Below, in pieces: positions 15,701-52,823 of a DNA stretch of 64,000 bases. This DNA is from Argopecten irradians. Taxonomy: Eukaryota; Mollusca; Bivalvia; Pectinida; Pectinidae. Each line of letters starts with the position of its first letter. Positions within the stretch are counted from its first letter, which is position 1. Location of the stretch: positions 9,704,755 through 9,768,754 of the forward strand of contig NC_091134.1 in NCBI RefSeq assembly GCF_041381155.1, written 5' to 3'. The notes below the pieces were generated by a model that saw only the letters and a program-made list of their open reading frames with translations, did no database searches and was not told the DNA's origin. The translations under genes were made by a program, and so were the position numbers.

Positions 15701-15710
15701 TAGCTTTATG

Positions 15711-16150
15711 ACTGGAAGACCATAAAGGCCTATTTTTTTCAAAAATTGCCATAATTTTCAAAATAGGCTTAATATAGAAAATGACCTAATAATCAGAAAA
15801 ATCTAATTCTGAGCAAACTGGTCTAAAATAACCACCATGGTACTAATTTCCATGACCCCGGTCTAATATTACAGCAGCGGTCTAATTTTCAGTGATGAGT
15901 CTAATTTTCAGTGACCGGGTCTAATTTTCAGTGATGGGTCTAATTTTCAGTAACCGGTCTAATGTTGGTGACCACATACAGTCTAATATTCCAGCGGAAG
16001 TCTAATTTTCAGTGATGGGTCTAATTTGACCGGTCTAATTTTGGTGACCACAGTCTAATATTGCAGCTGTGATCTAATTTTCAGTGGCGGGTCAAATTTT
16101 GATGACCCAAGTCTAAATTTCATAGTGGTGGTCTAATTTTCAGTGAGTGT
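15711..16150 (+). repeat. Left inverted arm with GTCTAATTTTCAG motif array
   Basis: The first ~110 bp is unique TIR sequence. Then come about 15 motif units, alternating between full forms (GTCTAATTTTCAGTGATGG) and variants such as GTCTAATATTACAGC and GTCTAATTTTGGTGACC. The same order of variants is seen, reversed, in the right arm. The array is directly repeated within the arm and inverted between arms. Confidence 0.85.
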
Positions 16151-17630
16151 AGTCTGCGGATGAGGCTTGCACATTTTTAGCTAAATAAAGGTCATATTCA
16201 TTATCCAATGAGTATTTAACTCATATTGAGAAACCGATTAAGTTCTTGTTGTAAACATGAATTCTTGGAAGTATACTTGTATAGCTAATAAGCCCTATAA
16301 AGCGGTCGTAAGCTACATTACAGACGATACACTATTATTATTATATGTCAGCTACAGACGATACACTATTATTATTATGTCATTATATTACCCAAGACCC
16401 GACCCGGGTAGTCTGATGTCTCCTAGTTAAACTCACTTTATAAAATTGTTACACTTTCATGATATATGGCATGAAGCAAGGATTTATAAGTGAGAAGGAT
16501 TCATCGCTGTCCCTTTACATTACTAAACACCACGCGCGATGTCTATGAACCGGGAATACAAATCATTTTTCTCAACAAATACTTGTCTTATCGAGTCAAA
16601 CAAAACATGTAAAGTTTATTTAATTTCACAACGTTTATTACTTGCTTTAAGGACGGAAGATTTAGAAGCTATGTCTTAAATTTTCATTTAAAAAATACGA
16701 CAACTTATGAAATGACGGCCCGCTTCAGAAAGTAAGACGGTAACCCTCGCACCCGCAAGCTACATCAAAGGCTGCGCCGACGGATATCAAGGGAAAATCA
16801 GTCGTCGCCCAACGTCACGATCAGTGCACAAACACAAAAGCTTCTGCGTTGTATTCCTCTCATACGCGTCCTTGATATAAATAATTATGTCTGACAATGT
16901 ACATGTATCTTAAGAGCAAATTTCATTTCATTGCTTATTTACCAATATACATGTACATACGCTATTAGCTGCAATATTGTAGCTCAAAAGACTTTTTGAT
17001 AGAAAATGGTGTCGTCTTTAGAGCTACAATTGGTGCCTATTATTGCTAATGGAGCAAAGTAATGATTATGCAAACCATTATAAAACGTTTGTTTGCATTT
17101 TTATCGTACTTGTTTGATATCGCTTACCTACTAGGCAATAAAACTGAACCACATAAAATATAAAATTCTCATCGAGGCATTATTTTTTTACATAATACAT
17201 ATGAAGGTCTTTCTGAAGGGAATTTATACGGCAAGTCCACAAATTGTGAATTTGACGTCTTGTGAGTGGTACGGTAGATATTAAGAATGGTAGTTATGTT
17301 TGTTTTAGACAAAAAATAATATGTAAATGTATGTATACGCATAAAATAATTGGTAACCTACAAAAAAGTATAGAGAACTATGCACATCTAATACGTATAC
17401 ATGGTGATCCCTTTAGACAAGTATTTATAAGCTCATATACGTCCTTGCTTTAGACTATGTAATTAGCATTAGTCCAGTTGCAATGCTTCGTAATATATTC
17501 ATATAATCATATCATCATCCTAATTGGTCAAGAAGCTTACAGCTAAACAAATCGAGGATCAGGTATAATTGTGTGTGTGTGTGTATATATATATATAGTT
17601 GTAAATTATCATAGCCCATAACACAAATAT
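16151..17630. other. Interior of outer unit, left side, non-coding
   Basis: No recognisable protein. It contains a 37-bp-scale tandem duplication (CAGACGATACACTATTATTA at about 16,321 and 16,355), a GT/AT microsatellite at about 17,571-17,597, and two copies of a GGATTTATAAG-type motif (about 16,476 and 17,421), which also occurs just outside the right arm. Confidence 0.45.
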
Positions 17631-17640
17631 TCACTAGTAC
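17631..17640 (+). repeat. 10-bp target duplication, left
   Basis: TCACTAGTAC, identical to 18,676-18,685 on the other side of foldback copy 1. Confidence 0.85.
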
Positions 17641-18675
17641 CACAGGTGTTCGTTTCTAATATAAGTATAAGTATAATACTGGGTCAAGGTCTATAACTCG
17701 GCCGGCCATATAACACTACCCAATTTCAGAAAAAGTATGATTATTAACCAACCGTATAGGATATAATAATAGGAATACTCTCAATCGACAGCCAGATAAT
17801 TTATCTTTATTTTGGTATATGATACAATATATATCATGCCGTATTAATGTCACTAGGTATCCAAAAACATCGGAAAACAGCCAGATTTCAACTGGTCGGA
17901 CACTGTGGTGTCCTCCGATGAACACGCCAGGGCTCTAATGGGTAGCTCAAAAACCACTGCATGTCAACACTTCAGCGTCATAAGAATGAAAGTTTGGTAG
18001 AAAACAAACTTACCGGTTAGTAAATCCCTGGATAAATACCATCCATTTGCCTAACGTAGCCCTTTGAAATTTCCGATTGAAAAAAATTATGTCTCTAGCC
18101 GCCATGTAAGTATGTGTGCAGTAGATTTGTTTTGTCGGCGTTGATTGGCTCTCGAAAATTAATTGACCAATCAACGCCGAGAAAACAAATGTACTACACA
18201 CATATCAACATGACGGCTAGAGACACACATTTTTTCAATCGGAAATTTCAAAAGGCTGTATTGCGCAAATGGATGGTACATAGATAAACACTAACATACC
18301 GGTAAGTTTGTTTTTTTTACCAAACTTTAATTCCTATGAAGCTGAAGTGTTGACATGCAGTGGTTTTTGAACTACCCATTAGAGCCCTAGCGTGTTTATC
18401 GGAGGACACCACAGTGTCCGACCAGTTGAAATCTGGCTGTTTTCCGATGTTTCTGGATACCTAGTGACATTTATACGGCATGATATATATTGTATCATAT
18501 ACCAAATTAAAGATAAATTATCTGGCTGTCGATTGAGAGTATTTCTATTATTATATCCTATACGGTTGGATAATAATCATACTTTTTCTGAAATTGGGTA
18601 GTGTTATATGGCCGGCCGAGTTATAGACCTTGACCCAGTATTATACTTATACTTATATTAGAAACGAACACCTGT
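17641..18675. mobile_element. Foldback element, copy 1 (full-length palindrome)
   Basis: A 1035-bp element with arms of about 500 bp that pair along their whole length around a short AT-rich loop near 18,150-18,166. The ends are CACAGGTGTTCGTTTC and GAAACGAACACCTGT. A perfect 10-bp direct repeat TCACTAGTAC flanks it (17,631-17,640 and 18,676-18,685), which is strong evidence of transposition. Very long inverted repeats plus a 9-10 bp target duplication is the pattern of foldback and Mutator-like elements. There is no coding capacity. A 70-codon open frame on each arm is merely the same palindromic sequence read twice. Confidence 0.85.
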
Positions 18676-18685
18676 TCACTAGTAC
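18676..18685 (+). repeat. 10-bp target duplication, right
   Basis: TCACTAGTAC, identical to 17,631-17,640. Confidence 0.85.
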
Positions 18686-18699
18686 ACTACAAAACAGCC

Positions 18700-18900
18700 C
18701 ACTGCCGGTGTAACGTTGAAAATGGACCTCCGTTGAAAATTGACCTCGGGTCAGTTTTCAACGTTGAAAACGGACCCCGAATGCCGTTGAAAATTGACAG
18801 TGTCTAGGGTCAATTTTCAACGGAAGGTCTGTTGAAAAATGACCGTTGAAAAATGACCTTGGCAAACTATCAACGGATGGTCTTTTAAAAACTGACCCTT
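18700..18900 (+). repeat. Left CCGTTGAAAA motif cluster
   Basis: About eight units of GTTGAAAA with flanking GACC, in both orientations. The head-to-head doublet TTTTCAACGTTGAAAA falls at about 18,753-18,768. Confidence 0.8.
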
Positions 18901-19276
18901 GTACATTCACACATATAGCTGTTGCACAAACATGATTCTCGAATTCCGTTATCGCCATTCCTAAAATAAGCGACCCTTCTGTGCTGGTATTTAAATTATG
19001 TAATTACCGCGATTTGAATTGAAATTTGGTATCGTTATCATCGTAACAAATACCTCATTTAAATATTTTAGGTACTTGTATGTTTATTATGGAGAATACG
19101 GCACTACAAAACTTTTATTTTTCTATAGTCATTTTGTCCGTCCGTGTAGATAATGTTAATTTAATTGTTCTCAAACTGAGGAAATACTATATAACACTGA
19201 GGTAACGTAGGAAATAAAAAGGAATGCTGTTATAAACTGCATGCAAAGTTTGTACTATGTGGTGTTTCACTTCCTA
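18901..19276. other. Inner-unit interior, nothing recognised
   Basis: AT-rich DNA between the motif cluster and foldback copy 2. No coding or repeat structure seen. Confidence 0.4.
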
Positions 19277-19283
19277 GTACTAG

Positions 19284-20321
19284 CACAGGTGTTCGTTTCT
19301 AATATAAGTATAAGTATAATACTGGGTCAAGGTCTATAACTCGGCCGGCCATATAACACTACCCAATTTCAGAAAAAGTATGATTATTATCCAACCGTAT
19401 AGGATATAATAATAGAAATACTCTCAATCGACAGCCAGATAATTTATCTTTAATTTGGTATATGATACAATATATATCATGCCGTATAAATGTCACTAGG
19501 TATCCAGAAACATCGGAAAACAGCCAGATTTCAACTGGTCGGACACTGTGGTGTCCTCCGATAAACACGCTAGGGCTCTAATGGGTAGTTCAAAAACCAC
19601 TGCATGTCAACACTTCAGCTTCATAGGAATTAAAGTTTGGTAAAAAAAAAAAAAACTTACCGGTATGTTAGTGTTTATCTATGTACCATCCATTTGCGCA
19701 ATACAGCCTTTTGAAATTTCCGATTGAAAAAATGTGTGTCTCTAGCCGTCATGTTGATATGTGTGTAGTACATTTGTTTTCTCGGCGTTGATTGGTCAAT
19801 TAATTTTCGAGAGCCAATCAACGCCGACAAAACAAATCTACTGCACACATACTTACATGGCGGCTAGAGACATAATTTTTTTCAATCGGAAATTTCAAAG
19901 GGCTACGTTAGGCAAATGGATGGTATTTATCCAGGGATTTACTAACCGGTAAGTTTGTTTTCTACCAAACTTTCATTCTTATGACGCTGAAGTGTTGACA
20001 TGCAGTGGTTTTTGAGCTACCCATTAGAGCCCTGGCGTGTTCATCGGAGGACACCACAGTGTCCGACCAGTTGAAATCTGGCTGTTTTCCGATGTTTTTG
20101 GATACCTAGTGACATTAATACGGCATGATATATATTGTATCATATACCAAAATAAAGATAAATTATCTGGCTGTCGATTGAGAGTATTCCTATTATTATA
20201 TCCTATACGGTTGGTTAATAATCATACTTTTTCTGAAATTGGGTAGTGTTATATGGCCGGCCGAGTTATAGACCTTGACCCAGTATTATACTTATACTTA
20301 TATTAGAAACGAACACCTGTG
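19284..20321. mobile_element. Foldback element, copy 2, opposite orientation
   Basis: A 1038-bp near-identical copy of the element at 17,641-18,675, reversed: features that distinguish the two arms (GTTAACC-type versus GATAACC-type bases, and the TGTTAGTGTTTATCTATG segment) sit on the opposite sides. It is flanked by GTACTAG on both sides (19,277-19,283 and 20,322-20,328), the reverse complement of the CTAGTAC core in the copy 1 target. Together the two copies form a 2.7-kb inverted repeat with a ~600-bp spacer. Non-coding. It lies within the CCGTTGAAAA unit and so is younger than it. Confidence 0.85.
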
Positions 20322-20328
20322 GTACTAG

Positions 20329-20490
20329 TGGATAGTGTTACAAAACTATATTTATGGGATATCATTAATTTGTTTCTCAATGATTTTTTATGATTATGTT
20401 TTCGACGATATTACGTTTTTCAGGTATTCAGTAATTGTTAATATATATTTACTCCCTGCAATACAAGAGTACGTGTATTATATATAGATC
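20329..20490. other. Short spacer before the satellite
   Basis: AT-rich, no structure recognised. Confidence 0.35.
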
Positions 20491-20494
20491 TGCG

Positions 20495-22360
20495 TATGGA
20501 TCAGTTATGTTGTGTTCTGCGTATGGTTGTGTTGTGTTGTGTTTTGTGGTTGTGTTTTTTGGTGTTGTGTGGTGTTGTAGTGTGTTGTTGTGTGATGTTG
20601 TGTTGTTGTGTGTTGTGTTGTTATGCGTGGTTGTGTAATGTAATTGTGTTGTATGTTATTGGTGTGTTGTTGTGTTGTTGTATGTTGTGTGGCTGTGTTT
20701 GTGCTGTGTTGTTGTGTGTTGTTGTGTTATGTGATGTGTTGTTGTGTGATGTTTTGTTGTGTGATTTTGTGTTGTGTTATATTGTGTGATGTTGTGTTGT
20801 GTGATGTTGTGTCGTTGTGTGTTGTGTTGTGTTGTTATGTGTGGTTGTGTAATGTTATTGTGTTTTGTGTTATTGATGTGCTGTTGTGTTGTGTGTTGCT
20901 GTATGCTGTTCGGATGTGTTTTTGTGTTGTGTTGTTGTGTGTTGTTGTTCCGTGTTGTGTATGTGTAATGTGTTGTTGTGTGATGTTTTTGTGATTATTG
21001 TTGCGTTATGTTGTGTTGTTGTTAGGTGTTGTGTTGTTGTGTATTGTTGTGTTGTTGTTAGGTGGTGCTGTATTGTTGTTGTGTGGTGTAATGGTTGTGT
21101 TTTGTGTTGTTGTGTTGTGTGATGTGTCGTTGTGTGATGTTGTCGTGTGTTGTGTTGTTGTGTATTATTGCGTTGTGTTGTTTTTGGGTGGTGTTGTATT
21201 GTTGTTTCGTGATTGTGTGTTGTGGTTGTGTTGTGTGTTGAGTTATGTGTTGTTGTTTGGTGTTTTGTTGTTATGTTGTGTTGTGAAATGTAATTGTGTT
21301 GTGTGTTATTGGTGTGTTGTTGTGTTGTGTGTTGTTGTATGCTGCGTGGCTGTGTTTGTGTTGTTTTTGTGTTGTTGTTGGTGATGTGTTGTTGTGTGAT
21401 GTTTTGTTGCGTGATTTTGTGTTGTGTTATGTTGTGTGATGTTGTGTTGTGTGATGTTGTGTCGTTGTGTGTTGTGTTGTGTTGTTATGTGTGGTTGTGT
21501 AATGTTATTGTGTTGTGTGTTATTGATGTGTTGTTGTGTTGTTGTATGCTGTTCGGATGTGTTTTGTGTTGTGTTGTGTTGTGTTGTTGTGTGTTGTTGT
21601 TCCGTGTATGTGTAATGTGTTGTTGTGTGATGTTTTTGTGATGTATTGTTGCGTTATGTTGTGTTGTTGTTAGGTGGTGCTGTATTGTTGTTGTGTGGTG
21701 TAGTGGTTGTGTTTTGTGTTGTGTGTGTTGTGTGATGTGTTGTTGTGTGAAGATGTGTTGTGTGATGATGTGTGTTGTGTGATGTTGTCGTGTGTTGTGT
21801 TGTTGTGTATTATTGTGTTGTGTTGTTTTTGGGTGGTGTTGTATTGTTGTTTCGTGGTTGTGTGTTGTGGTTGTGCTGTTTGTTGAGTTATGTGTTGTTG
21901 TTTGGTGTTTTGTTGTTATGTTGTGTTGTTGTGGTGTTGTGCGTTGTTGGTTGGTGGTGTTATGTTGTTGTTGCGTGTTTGTGTGATGTGTTGTTGTGTT
22001 ATGTTGTATTGTGTGATGTTGTGTTGTGTGGTGTTGTTGGATGTTGTTGTATTGGTGTTTCGTGGTTGTGTGTTGTGGTGTGGTTGTGTTGTATGATGTT
22101 TTGTTGTGTCGTGTTGTTGTGTAATGTTGTCTTGTATTGTGTGGTTGTGTGATGTTGTGTTCAGTGTGATGCGTTGTTGTGTTGTGTGATGTTATGTTAT
22201 GTGAGGTTGTGTTGTGTGGAGTTGTGTTATTTTGTTGTGTTTTGTTGTGTGGTGTGATGTGTTGTGTGGTGTTTTTGTAGTGTTGTTGTGTTGTTGGTGT
22301 GTTGATGTGCTGTGTGATGCTGTGTAGTTTCATGGTGTTGTGGTGTCGTGTTGTGTTGTG
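20495..22360 (+). repeat. G/T-strand satellite (TGTTG/TGATG units), ~645-bp higher-order period
   Basis: The plus strand is almost entirely TGTTGTG, TGATG, TGGTTG and similar words and is nearly devoid of C. Longer blocks recur at an offset of about 645-650 bp: TTGTGTGTTATTGATGTG-type and TTGTCGTGTGTTGTGTTGTT-type blocks (near 21,139 and 21,783), and the GTGTAATGTAATTGTGTTG type (near 20,633 and 21,283). The array therefore has about two to three higher-order copies. The many long open frames, Cys/Val/Leu-rich on plus and His/Thr/Asn/Gln-rich on minus, follow from the composition and are not genes. Confidence 0.9.
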
Positions 22361-22379
22361 TAAAAACGAGTTCTTATGG

Positions 22380-22519
22380 GATCAATTTTCAACGGGTCGG
22401 TGTAAAAAGTGCGTTTAAAGTTCAGTTTTCAACGGTTTTCGGGGTCATTTTTCAACGTTGAAAAATGACCCGAGGTCAGTTTTCAACGGGGGTCCATTTT
22501 CAACATTACACCGGTAATG
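22380..22519 (-). repeat. Right CCGTTGAAAA motif cluster
   Basis: About six units, mostly as TTTTCAACGG, mirroring the left end of the inner unit and ending in ACACCGGTAATG. Confidence 0.8.
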
Positions 22520-23698
22520 ACGCCACATTCGGTTATTCCCCCCAAATCAGCAGTCTCATGAGTCGTTAAACAGGTACCAATTGATCAATTTTGAGGGCGG
22601 TATCTCGGTATAGTATCATTGTCAGAAAATTAAACAGAATAACATATCAAAACATAAGCGAGTCAACATGAGCGAGGTACTTCGACAGCGGTATCGTAAC
22701 TTACCCAGACCAAGGATGTATATGAGACTTAATTATAATAAGGCCATGCGATTTTTACGTTTTTTTTTTTCTTAATTAATTTAAACGGCGCTTTGATTTC
22801 AGCTTAATTTAAGTGTCCGAATGAGAACCAGAGAGACAGCGCATGGGCGATATCTTTTACTAAACTAAATCTGCCGATATGTTTGAAATTTTCTGATCCA
22901 TGTTACGTGTTTAGTGAATAAAAGGATAACATTAATTTATTAATTTTTGATTCATATCGAGAGATTCTGCACTATATATGTTTCTTCTGCATGTCCAACA
23001 AGTGACGTGTTCATAAACTTATTTTCAGCATATGTTTATACGCTTCCTTTGAAATATTTATTTCAATACATCCATGTTATAATGAAATGGCTCTGCATAC
23101 TCTAGTTAGTTGTATAACTTACGGAAATATAAATTTTGAAAATCACAACATGTGATGTCAAATATCAGTACATGGTGTCGCTGGTAGATCGCCGTGTGAC
23201 CAAGACAAGAGGGGGGGGTCATCCTCTTAGCACAGGATAATATCGTGATTGATTGACAGTCGTTCAAATGATCCACGTCATTGCAACTCACACGTATATT
23301 ATAAAGACATTGTACCTGAACATCTGGTCCAAGATGTTAAGATGTTAAGCATGACATGATGGATGATTAAAAGAAATACCTTTACCATACATATTGTTGT
23401 TGAACACCAAAATGTATTATTAAAACAATTTAAACTAGATCATTTAAATAAGTAGAGATAATCACTCATCGTAGTCCACACCAGGAATAAAAATCGAAAC
23501 AATTTTGCATTTGTTTTACAAAATTGCATCAGCAAATATAAGTATGAATTGTTTTCTATACAGAAACATCAACTTATAAATCCTTGAGACATAAATAATT
23601 TAATTACTATTTATATAAATGTTTTATAATATGAACATGTACTTAGCTATTGTGTACGGTGTATTATTACTTACCAAAATTTGACAAAATATAATAAC
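22520..23698. other. Interior of outer unit, right side, non-coding
   Basis: No recognised protein, RNA gene or repeat. Short frames here lack any motif. Confidence 0.4.
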
Positions 23699-23802
23699 CC
23701 AGGCGTCTGCTTCTGGCTTGATAAAAAATATAATAACCTACCTCTACTATAAAGTAGGGTTGGGAAATTGTATTTTTCCAAAACCAAATGCAGACGCCTG
23801 TG
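23699..23802. repeat. Imperfect palindrome at inner edge of right arm
   Basis: AGGCGTCTGC (about 23,702) pairs with GCAGACGCCT (about 23,791). The stem continues imperfectly to a loop near 23,745-23,757. It sits where the motif array of the right arm ends and has no counterpart of the same form at the left arm. Confidence 0.65.
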
Positions 23803-24192
23803 ATTTGACCTAGTCGCTGAAAATTAGACTCGTCACTGAAAAATAGACCACCACTATAACATTTAGCTTGGGTCATCAAAATTAGACCCGCCACTGAAAA
23901 TTATACCACCGCTGCAAAATTAGACTGTGGTCACCAAAATTAGACCGGTCACTGAAAATAAGACCCATCACTGAAAATTAGACCCATCACTGAAAATTAG
24001 ACCCATCACTGAAAATTAGACCGCTGCTGTAATATTAGACCGGGGTCATGGAAATTAGTACCATAGTGATTATTTTTAGACCAGTTTGCTCAGAATTAGA
24101 TTTTTCTGATTATTAGGTCATTTTCTATCAATATTAGGCCTGTTTTGAAAATTATGGCAATTTTAAAAAAAAGGCCTTTATGGTCTTCCAGT
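23803..24192 (-). repeat. Right inverted arm with GTCTAATTTTCAG motif array
   Basis: Reverse-complement partner of 15,711-16,150, ending GGCCTTTATGGTCTTCCAGT. The array contains several almost perfect successive units (ACTGAAAATTAGACCCATC) near 23,965-24,020, more homogeneous than the left arm, which suggests recent expansion or conversion. Confidence 0.85.
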
Positions 24193-25745
24193 GTAATTGA
24201 TTATGGAATTGCATGTACAAAAATGCACCTTTAAACTAATTCCAAAGGAATGATTTATTAATCTACACAAGGACGTATATGATCTCACTTATAAATCCTT
24301 GATCTACAAAAGAGGGCAAACGTCAAATCTGAAATAAATGGTAAAAAGAAAAAAATGAATATACAGACTGTACTGCTCTGTACTTGTGCTATAACATTTT
24401 ACTTAAGTTTGATCCTACACGATAACCATGTTAATCCATGTTCATCCCATTATGAATCACAAAAGTAATCTAAAAGGATGATAAAATATCCATGACAAAT
24501 ACATGACATAAGATCCGGGACCGATTGAGAAGTACGCCTTGTATTTGGGAGAATACGGAACTAACGAAATAAAATCAATATTTTGAAATCAATTTGACTT
24601 GTATGTAACCTTTCCAGAAAACAATTTTTACCTCTAATCGTAGCTATAATCACCAGTTCTTTAATTAAATAAAACTTCATATCACCAAACCATTTATGTA
24701 CCTGGTGCAAAATCAGCAAACTGATAAAACTGCGATCAAAAAGTTTAAATTTTCCAGCTTGTGATTGACCTAGGTTTCCACAACAATTAAAAACTGTTTA
24801 TTTTCACTTTCAGAAGTTAATATAAAACTGTTTTAAATTATCTTCATATCTAACTTTCTTATAGTTTAACAACCTCTTACATAAAATAAGGCATTATTTT
24901 CTCTTTATTCTTTTGTAATCTTGTGAAATTGCCTTATAAAGCGATGTATCCAGTGTTCTGTTGCGACTGTCAACTACATAGAGATACTAATTGTATTCAG
25001 GTACATGTAGGTTAGATGTGGACCTCAACTGGGATCTATTTATTATAAATGTCCTATATAATGAACTTCTTAGTACATTCAATAAATTTTCCATGAGTCA
25101 TCCATATTTTGGGAGTATGAACCATCCGGCACTCATTCATACCTCAGGCTTAAAGGGTTTGCGCAATTCACCGTTCTGAATAAATATACATTTGTATTTT
25201 ATTGATGCCCGGTGATAAAATTAATATAATCATAAACTGTATTGGATTTGATTTCTAAAAACATTGTTTTTTCAGGGTTTTTTTTTCAAAGTAATCACAT
25301 ACATCTGCATACAGTTTACATCATGATCAGTATATTATATAATTCATAATATCCTCATTATCACACATATTCGATCATACTGTAAAGTTTTATGATGTTA
25401 ACATGTATATATGTACCAATCAACATGTTATGGGCATTCACCCTATCTTTGTACATAGAAAGTGGAAAAACATTATTTAAAATACACCAATAATTTAATT
25501 GGACGTTAAAATTACAAAAACATCTTTTGTGTAAGTTTGGTTTGTTAGTTTAACGTCTTATTAAATAAAATAGAAGTGTTGTTATTATATAAACGTGTTT
25601 GTTTAAAATGTGTGTGTTAGTGACACATCACCTATATTGTATTTCTCTCAAGTACATACGGGTGTAATACTGGTGTAACCTATTGCAATACACGTGTGTC
25701 GAATGAGCCTATATTATATGGTTATCATAGCTACTTTATATCAAA
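24193..25745. other. Intergenic, nothing recognised
   Basis: AT-rich. Just outside the outer unit, about 24,266-24,301, is an inverted copy of the GGATTTATAAG motif also present inside the unit. No gene seen. Confidence 0.4.
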
Positions 25746-50762: not shown

Positions 50763-52823
50763 CAAAGAGCCCAAGAGGCCTATGGGCCTTTACGGTCATC
50801 TGACTATTGGCACAATACAACATAGTTGTTTAAGATTTTAGCCTATTTGACTAATGTGAATGAAGATCAATGTCACTTTTTTAAAACAAATATGGCAGCC
50901 CTTTATCCCAGCATGTCACAGGCCCAATACTAGGCCTCTAGGCCTCTCAGTTATTCACAAAAAGTTATTTCAAGATTTTAGCCTATTTGACCCCTGTGGC
51001 CTTAGTTGAAGGTCAAGCTCATTCATTTGTACGAACTTGGTAGCTCTCCATCAAAGAATGTCACAGGCCCAATATCGGGTCTTTAGGCCTCCTAATTATT
51101 CTAAAGAAATCGCTTTAAAACATTAACCTATTTGACCCCTGTGACCTTAAGTGACAGTCAAGGTCATTATTTTGATAAATTTTTGATTTGATATTTTGAT
51201 TATTTTGATGAAGTAGCCCTTCATCAAAGTAAGCTGCAGGTCCAATATGGGCATCCTGGGCCTTTCAAAACATTAACCTATTTGACCCCTGTGACCTTAA
51301 GTGACAGTCAAGGTCATTATTTTGATAAATTTTTGATTTGATATTTTGATTATTTTGATGAAGTAGCCCTTCATCAAAGTAAGCTGCAGGTCCAATATGG
51401 GCATCCTGGGCCTTTCAGAAGATTTTAGCCTATTTGACCCCTGTGATTTTGAAGGTCAAAGTCATTCATTTGAACAAACTTAGTAGCCCTTCATCTTAGC
51501 ATGCTGCAGGCCCAATATGAGTATCCCGGGTCTTTCGGTTCTTGAGAAGAAGTTGTTTTAAGAATTTAGCCTATTTGACCCCTATGACCTTGGATGAAGG
51601 TCAAGGTCATTCATTTGAACAAACTTTGTAGCCCTTCATCCCAGCATGTTGCATGCCCAATATGAGTATTCTAGGCCGTTCGGTTCTTGAGAAGAAGTCG
51701 TTTAAAGATTTAAGCCTATTTCACCCCTGGGACCTTGTCGTTCATTTTAACAAACTTGGTAGCCCTTTATCCCAGCATGTCAGAGGCCCAATATCAGATC
51801 TCTAGGCGTCCTTTTTATTTTCAAGAAGTGGTTTAAAGAATTTAGCCTATTTGACTCATGTGACCTTGAATGAAGTCAGGGTCATTAACTTAAACAATTG
51901 TGTAGCCCTTCATCCCAGCATGTTGCAGGTCCAGTATGAGCATATTGGGCCTTTCAGACTTGAAAAGAAGTCGATAAAAAAATCTTAGCCTATTTGACCT
52001 CTGTGACCTTGAAGGTCAAGGTCATTCATTTGAACAAATTTTAGTAGTCCTTCATCTCAGCATGTTGAAGGCCCAATACTAGTATCCTGGGCCTTTCGGT
52101 TCTTGAGAAAAAGTTGATTCGAGAGTTTAGCCTATTTGACCCCTGTGACATTGAATGAAGCTCAAGATCATTCATTTGAACAAAAACGTGGTAGCCCTTC
52201 ATTCCAGCATACTGAAGGCCCAATATGAGAATCCTAGGCCGTTCGGTTCTTGAGAAGAAGTCGTTTAAAGATTTTAGCCTATTTCACCTCTGTGATCTTG
52301 AATGACTTTAGGGTAATGTCATTCATCTGAACAACTTGGTAGCCCTACATCCCACCATGACACAGGCCCAATATCAGATCTCTAAATGTCCTAGTTATTC
52401 ACAAGAATTTGTTTAAAGGCTTTTGGCCTTATTGACCTCTTTAGCCTTAAGTGAAGGTCAAGATCATTCGTTTGAACGAACTTGATATCCCTTCATCCCA
52501 ACACGGGCTCAATTATCAGGTCTCTAGGCCTCTTAGTTATAGACAAGAAGTTGTTTAAAGGATTTTAGCCTATTTGACCCCTGTGACCTTTAATGAAGGT
52601 CAAGTTCATTCAAAACAAACTTGATAGGTCAAGGTCACTTCATTAACAAACTTTGTAGCCCTTCATGCCAGCATGATACAGGCCCAATATCAGTACCCTG
52701 GGCCTTTCGGTTATTGAGAAGAAGCCGTTTGAATGAAAAGTTTACGCACGGTGGACGGCGGACGGCGAACGGCGCACGACGACGGGCGGTGCATGATGAC
52801 AATATGTCATCCTGACCCTTCGA
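50763..52823 (-). mobile_element. TAGCTCACC-family element with a 13-unit internal array
   Basis: On the minus strand it reads from a GC-rich CGTC/GTCC head (52,740-52,823, decayed) to the hairpin tail GATGACCGTAAAGGCCCATA followed by GGCCTCTTGG (50,763-50,802). That is the same layout and tail as the plus-strand element at 2,175-3,770. Between them lie 13 units of 131-150 bp keyed by TTTAGCCTATTTGACCCC, TGTGACCTTGAATGAAGG, GTAGCCCTTCATCCCAGCAT and GGCCCAATAT (unit starts near 50,840, 50,978, 51,127, 51,275, 51,425, 51,567, 51,709, 51,840, 51,985, 52,125, 52,274, 52,424 and 52,563). The units at 51,121 and 51,271 are nearly identical over 150 bp, a recent duplication. Non-coding. Confidence 0.85.

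What the first reader, a model, noticed from the sequence alone, without database searches (positions are those of the whole stretch)
15711..24192. Nested transposon complex in which two unrelated units use the same end design
The outer unit (15,711-24,192) and inner unit (18,700-22,519) have different end sequences but the same plan: a short unique tip, then clusters of a short degenerate motif (GTCTAATTTTCAGTGA-type versus CCGTTGAAAAYTGACC-type), mirrored at the other end, with no transposase inside. Dense binding-site-like arrays at both ends with no coding suggest two non-autonomous families driven by multimeric transposases elsewhere in the genome. I do not recognise either family.
Basis: partly seen in the sequence, partly recalled or inferred. 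Interest (0 to 1): 0.72.

Follow-up and report, generated by a model that had tools for sequence, protein, structure and literature searches.

The report
Nested nonautonomous Ginger1 and CACTA-like transposons
The stretch is a set of jumping-DNA elements nested inside one another; the outer and inner ones fit two different known transposon groups that both carry rows of short repeats at their ends, and no gene for moving themselves was found in them.

Summary
OUTER unit (15,710-24,193): CAC..GTG ends with subterminal arrays. Its tips recur in the 846-Mb genome, often as inward-facing pairs sharing interiors. Exact 3-bp target duplications flank 4 of 12 two-ended loci (about 0.2 expected); 8 loci lack one. 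Best fit: a non-autonomous CMC (CACTA/EnSpm or Chapaev) family. INNER unit: 18,709-22,510 (TGTAAC...ATTACA) between CCGG copies. Another outer copy (L056) is the empty site with one CCGG, so CCGG is the target duplication. Genome-wide, 369 of 489 exact inner tips follow CCGG (75%; about 2 expected). TGTNR ends plus CCGG duplications are published marks of Ginger1, so this is most likely a non-autonomous Ginger1 family. Two hairpin elements (about 1.04 kb) from a young, abundant family are nested too and were not mentioned. So two unrelated known kinds share an end plan. Modest surprises: CACTA-style arrays on a Ginger1-type family, and a shared motif core TGAAAATT(A)GACC (15 of 20,000 shuffles), meaning open.

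The parts
15710..24193 (.). Outer non-autonomous CMC-type (CACTA/EnSpm or Chapaev group) element, CAC..GTG ends (first C mutated to G here)
   Evidence: tips and flanks, inward pairing, shared interiors
15710..16150 (+). Outer left arm: tip plus subterminal array of about 19-bp motif units
23800..24193 (-). Outer right arm, inverted copy of the left arm
18709..22510 (.). Inner element, most likely non-autonomous Ginger1, ends TGTAACGTTG / CAACATTACA
   Evidence: empty site in L056; tip counts
18705..18708 (.). CCGG target duplication, left copy
22511..22514 (.). CCGG target duplication, right copy
18709..18905 (+). Inner left arm with GTTGAAAANNGACC array
22370..22510 (-). Inner right arm with the same array inverted
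20526..22361 (.). TG-rich low-complexity block of the inner element, also present in other inner copies
17641..18675 (.). Hairpin element P1 inserted in the outer element
   Evidence: end placed by eye, uncertain by about one base
19284..20321 (.). Hairpin element P2 inserted in the inner element
   Evidence: end placed by eye, uncertain by about one base

Best explanation
The locus is a stack of non-autonomous cut-and-paste DNA transposons. The outer one is a CMC-type (CACTA/EnSpm or Chapaev group) element with CAC..GTG ends, a 3-bp target duplication and subterminal motif arrays. The inner one is a Ginger1-type element with TGTAA ends that landed in a CCGG site of the outer copy and duplicated it. 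One hairpin element later landed in the inner unit and one lies in the outer unit. Most likely each family is or was moved in trans by a transposase of its own superfamily (a CMC DDE transposase; a Gypsy-integrase-like Ginger1 transposase), and the arrays are binding sites that help recognise and pair the two ends. Shown: ends, arrays, inward pairing, CCGG duplication by an empty site, family spread. Partly shown: the 3-bp duplication. Inferred: which transposases act and what the arrays bind.
For: Inner: empty site with a single CCGG in L056; 369 of 489 exact tips preceded by CCGG, about 2 expected; published Ginger1 marks TGTNR ends, 40-270 bp TIRs, CCGG 75% (passages); inward pairs 27 of 28. 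Outer: C before ACTGG in 38 of 40 distinct ends; exact 3-bp duplications in 6 of 14 units = 4 of 12 loci; for L052 four paralogues crossing the joined flanks are 8 bases shorter than the query while C337, stopping at the junction, is 5 shorter, which implies 3 extra bases; inward pairs 14 of 14; CAC..GTG ends with 2-5 bp duplications are typical of the CMC/CMCT clade (passages); PF02992 transposases exist in this genome (46 hits).
Against: No autonomous copy of either family was found. The nearest PF02992 hit to an outer tip is 61 kb away, and that tip is a 3-mismatch hit; the next is 178 kb. None of 8 OTU hits on C1-C3 is within 267 kb of the 131 inner tips listed there; of 36 listed PF17921 hits on C1-C3 the nearest to a tip is 8.5 kb, but only 150 of 2343 PF17921 candidates were scored. 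8 of 12 outer loci, the window copy included, lack an exact 3-bp duplication. Joined L053 flanks exceed the satellite units by 6 bases, not 3. A fifth paralogue (C12, 81% identity) is 13 shorter than the query. CCGT, ACGG and ACGT together precede only 33 of 489 inner tips, below the published 24% for CCGT/ACGG.
Confidence: 0.8

Rival explanations
1. Both units are CACTA relatives: the inner one also begins CACTG, so the common end design is common ancestry.
For: The window reads CACTGCCGG at 18,700; both arrays share a TGAAAATT(A)GACC core.
Against: In the empty site L056 CACTG is outer-element DNA and CCGG is present once. The bases before CCGG vary among the places listed and the loci. 369 of 489 exact tips start right after CCGG.
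Confidence: 0.04
2. The outer family is not CMC but another superfamily, with a target duplication of 4-6 bp or none.
For: 8 of 12 loci lack an exact 3-bp duplication. AGAAC occurs next to both ends of L051. Joined L053 is 6 bases longer than satellite units. No PF02992 hit lies near the tips.
Against: C/G just outside ACTGG/CCAGT in 38 of 40 ends. Exact 3-bp matches recur at four loci with different sequences, about 0.2 expected. The L052 paralogue lengths fit 3 extra bases.
Confidence: 0.15
3. The arms are tandem-repeat (minisatellite) arrays that spread on their own, and the bounded units are accidental.
For: The arrays are tandem, with periods near 19 and 58 bp. 71 of 99 outer tips have no inward partner within 20 kb.
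Against: Neighbouring tips face inward, 14 of 14 and 27 of 28. Tips have fixed first bases. Interiors are shared. The inner unit has a clean empty site.
Confidence: 0.03

Closest known systems
Ginger1 DNA transposons (Bao, Kapitonov and Jurka 2010, PMC2836005; abstract and passages seen)
   Same: TGTNR ends, inverted repeats in the 40-270 bp range, CCGG target duplication in about 75% of copies, non-autonomous copies alongside
   Different: Subterminal motif arrays and a TG-rich core; the word 'subterminal' does not occur in that paper. CCGT/ACGG class rarer here. Transposase not seen here.
CACTA/EnSpm transposons (for example En/Spm and soybean Tgmt, PMC2613891; passages seen)
   Same: CAC..GTG ends, 3-bp duplication at part of the loci, subterminal repeated motifs at both ends, non-autonomous copies
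   Different: Tip is CACTGGAAGACC rather than CACTA; animal-size genome of unknown species; no transposase linked; 8 of 12 loci without an exact duplication
Chapaev transposons (PMC4079192; passages seen)
   Same: CAC..GTG ends and 3- to 4-bp duplications
   Different: The Chapaev3 elements there show TWA duplications; here ATG, TCA, ATT and ATA. Subterminal arrays were not looked for in that paper.

Membership tests
Ginger1 (inner unit) | 5' ends TGTNR | tested here: met
   TGTAAC at the left end and TGTAAT at the right end
Ginger1 (inner unit) | 4-bp target duplication CCGG (75%) or CCGT/ACGG (24%) | tested here: met
   Empty site with one CCGG; 369 of 489 tips after CCGG, 33 more after CCGT, ACGG or ACGT, so the second class is rarer than published
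Ginger1 (inner unit) | Terminal inverted repeats of about 40-270 bp | tested here: met
   98-nt arms, 89% complementary; 85 of 99 identical over the first 100
Ginger1 (inner unit) | Gypsy-integrase-like transposase with GPY/F and OTU or Ulp1 domain in an autonomous relative with the same ends | tested here: inconclusive
CMC: CACTA/EnSpm or Chapaev (outer unit) | CAC..GTG termini | tested here: met
   C before ACTGG in 38 of 40 distinct ends held; the window's own left end has G
CMC: CACTA/EnSpm or Chapaev (outer unit) | 2- to 4-bp, usually 3-bp, target duplication | tested here: inconclusive
   Exact in 4 of 12 loci, absent in 8; L052 paralogues fit 3 bp; L053 does not fit
CACTA/EnSpm (outer unit) | Subterminal repeated motifs at both ends | tested here: met
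   7 and 7 motifs here; in 8 other copies counted 1-14 per 600-bp end and 0 in the interior
CACTA/EnSpm (outer unit) | Tnp2-type (PF02992) transposase in an autonomous relative with the same ends | tested here: inconclusive
   46 PF02992 hits in the genome, none within 60 kb of a listed outer tip; longer or diverged copies not read; other CMC transposases not searched

The most novel reading that the evidence does not exclude
Two transposon superfamilies with different chemistry (CMC-type and Ginger1) carry, in one genome, end arrays with nearly the same core, TGAAAATT(A)GACC, because both recruit the same host DNA-binding protein (or one family's accessory protein serves both), so that end recognition is a shared host service.
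Probability: 0.06. Interest if true: 0.65.

Novelty: new member of a known kind. Interest (0 to 1): 0.27.

Why it matters
It places two repeat families of this genome in known superfamilies, with exact ends and a clean empty site for one. It also gives a Ginger1-type family with CACTA-style subterminal arrays, a feature for which the founding Ginger paper has no mention of 'subterminal'. If the shared array core proved functional, it would bear on why unrelated transposases come to need similar end architecture. Otherwise it is useful annotation rather than a conceptual surprise.

Tried and rejected
Rejected: inner unit as CACTA (CACTG belongs to the flank; empty site). Inner CCGG as part of the inverted repeat without duplication (the empty site holds one CCGG). 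Outer ends as ACTGG without the C (C in 38 of 40 ends). Arms as independent arrays only.

Led nowhere: Integrase_H2C2 search (150 of 2343 candidates scored; nearest of 36 listed hits on C1-C3 is 8.5 kb from an inner tip). OTU search for an autonomous Ginger1 (8 hits on C1-C3 compared, the other 50 not compared). PF02992 proximity to outer tips. Local search for outer empty sites among held sequence spanned the junction only for L053, inside a satellite, with an unclear duplication. Paper searches: from their listings I opened passages of seven papers; I saw no description of these particular families there, which is no proof that none is in print. Repbase and Dfam could not be searched.
Full report
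What was checked. The window lies in an 846-Mb, 1508-contig assembly (C1:9,704,755-9,768,754), by size a eukaryote; the species was not established. Outside the TG-rich block the longest stop-to-stop frame is 81 aa. Five of the 14 frames printed there were scanned and match no Pfam family. Genome-wide PF02992 (46 hits) and OTU (58 hits) searches place nothing in the window.

Outer unit, spread. Its left arm gives 73 matching pieces, from 40 scored of 143 candidates. The 20-base tip has 99 hits with up to 3 mismatches against 30 for the reversed control, so many of the 26 three-mismatch hits may be chance; 73 have up to 2. Wherever two listed tips neighbour within 20 kb they face inward, 14 of 14, 0.6-17 kb apart; the other 71 tips have no such partner. 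Several fetched copies share interior DNA with the window, for example 22,614-23,645 and 16,380-16,951. In 8 copies counted, the motif occurs 1-14 times in each 600-bp end and never in the interior tested.

Outer unit, duplication. With ends read as CACTGG..CCAGTG, exact 3-bp duplications flank L049 and L050 (ATG/CAT; same flanks, inverted), L052 (TCA), L054 and L055 (ATT; same right flank) and L058/L059 (ATA): 6 of 14 two-ended units, or 4 of 12 loci, about 0.2 expected. The window copy (TAT/TAA), L051, L053, L056, L057, L060/L061, L062 and L063/L064 do not match.

Two further tests. For L052, four genomic paralogues at 89-90% identity that cross the joined flanks (query 44 to 210-214) are each 8 bases shorter than the query, while C337, which stops at the junction, is 5 shorter. 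This implies 3 extra bases at the junction, by arithmetic on coordinates and not on letters; a fifth, more distant paralogue (C12, 81%, query 148-367) is 13 shorter and is not interpretable this way. C337:8,315 is itself an outer tip, so that paralogue was either duplicated with its insert or hit at the same base. For L053, which sits in a 43-bp satellite, the joined flanks exceed the satellite units by 6 bases, which does not fit 3 bp cleanly.

Outer unit, placement. CAC..GTG ends with duplications of 2 to 5 bp are given for the CMC/CMCT clade, 3 to 4 bp for Chapaev (passages of PMC12730594 and PMC4079192). Subterminal repeats bound by TNPA are described for CACTA elements (passages of PMC2613891). 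I place the outer family in CMC, most likely CACTA/EnSpm-like, subgroup open. No transposase links it: the nearest of 46 PF02992 hits is 61 kb from a weak tip hit.

Inner unit. L056, another outer copy, has the same site without the inner unit and without hairpin P1...ACACTACAAAACAGCCCACTG-CCGG-TAATGACGTCACATTCGG... The window has CCGG on both sides of TGTAAC...ATTACA. So the element is 18,709-22,510, CCGG is the duplication, and CACTG at 18,700 is outer DNA. The exact 20-base tip occurs 489 times (reversed control 0); 369 (75.5%) follow CCGG and 402 follow MCGK. Among the first 100 listed tips, 27 of 28 neighbouring pairs within 10 kb face inward, 894-3,476 bp apart, median 2,017. Bao et al. 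2010 (abstract and passages) give for Ginger1: TGTNR ends, inverted repeats of 40-270 bp, duplications CCGG (75%) or CCGT/ACGG (24%). Ends, repeat length and the CCGG share are met; CCGT, ACGG and ACGT together make only 33 of 489. Several other inner copies share interior DNA, including the TG-rich block.

Hairpins. P1 (17,641-18,675) and P2 (19,284-20,321) are inverted near-copies, 1028 of 1029 aligned bases identical. A 361-bp piece of P1 has 893 candidates genome-wide; 40 were scored and gave 41 matches of 98-100% identity, so the family is young and abundant. P1 is flanked by CACTAGTAC on both sides, P2 by GTACTAG (read). Inner copies such as L012 and L017 lack P2. So the inner unit entered the outer one, and P2 then entered the inner unit; P1 entered the outer unit at an undetermined time.

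Mechanism. Most likely each non-autonomous family is or was cut and pasted by a transposase of its own superfamily made elsewhere, with the arrays as binding sites for end recognition, as TNPA sites are in CACTA elements. This is inference.

An overlooked detail. The commonest outer motif and the inner motif share TGAAAATT(A)GACC; 15 of 20,000 shuffles of the outer motif align as well. Of four other outer unit types, two resemble the inner motif (54 and 21 of 5,000 shuffles reach them) and two do not (1,051 and 962 of 5,000). The motifs were chosen after seeing them, so this is a lead only, and it is the base of the novel reading.

Verdict. Real, well bounded, and mostly explained by known kinds: most likely a non-autonomous Ginger1 family nested in a non-autonomous CMC-like family. 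Whether either is already in Repbase was not tested. The array-bearing Ginger1-type family is a modest novelty.

Noticed in passing
17,641-18,675 and 19,284-20,321: Two hairpin elements of about 1.04 kb, 1028 of 1029 aligned bases identical as inverted copies; 893 candidates genome-wide, 41 matches from the 40 scored at 98-100% identity: a young, abundant family with CACAGGTG..CACCTGT(G) ends and 7- to 10-bp flanking repeats, superfamily not settled.
   Followed up: partly
L053 (C3:66,078,650-66,087,536): This outer copy sits inside an array of 43-bp satellite units.
   Followed up: partly
L063/L064 (C1:19,163,245-19,180,710): The 17-kb outer pair contains a Gypsy-type pol frame of 1057 aa (RT, RNase H, H2C2, integrase core). 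Outer tips at C13:4,326,274 and C13:4,357,596 each have a PF17921 hit about 8.3 kb downstream.
   Followed up: partly
genome C8:29.0-31.2 Mb: Many outer copies with duplicated or inverted identical flanks (L049, L050, L039; L054, L055; L062, L065), suggesting segmental duplication or assembly duplication there.
   Followed up: no
C337:8,163-8,313 and L052: Two outer copies appear to begin at the same base of a shared repeat (94% identical flank): duplication with the insert, or repeated insertion at one site.
   Followed up: no
51,113-52,612: Tandem array with 142- to 150-bp units in the window.
   Followed up: no
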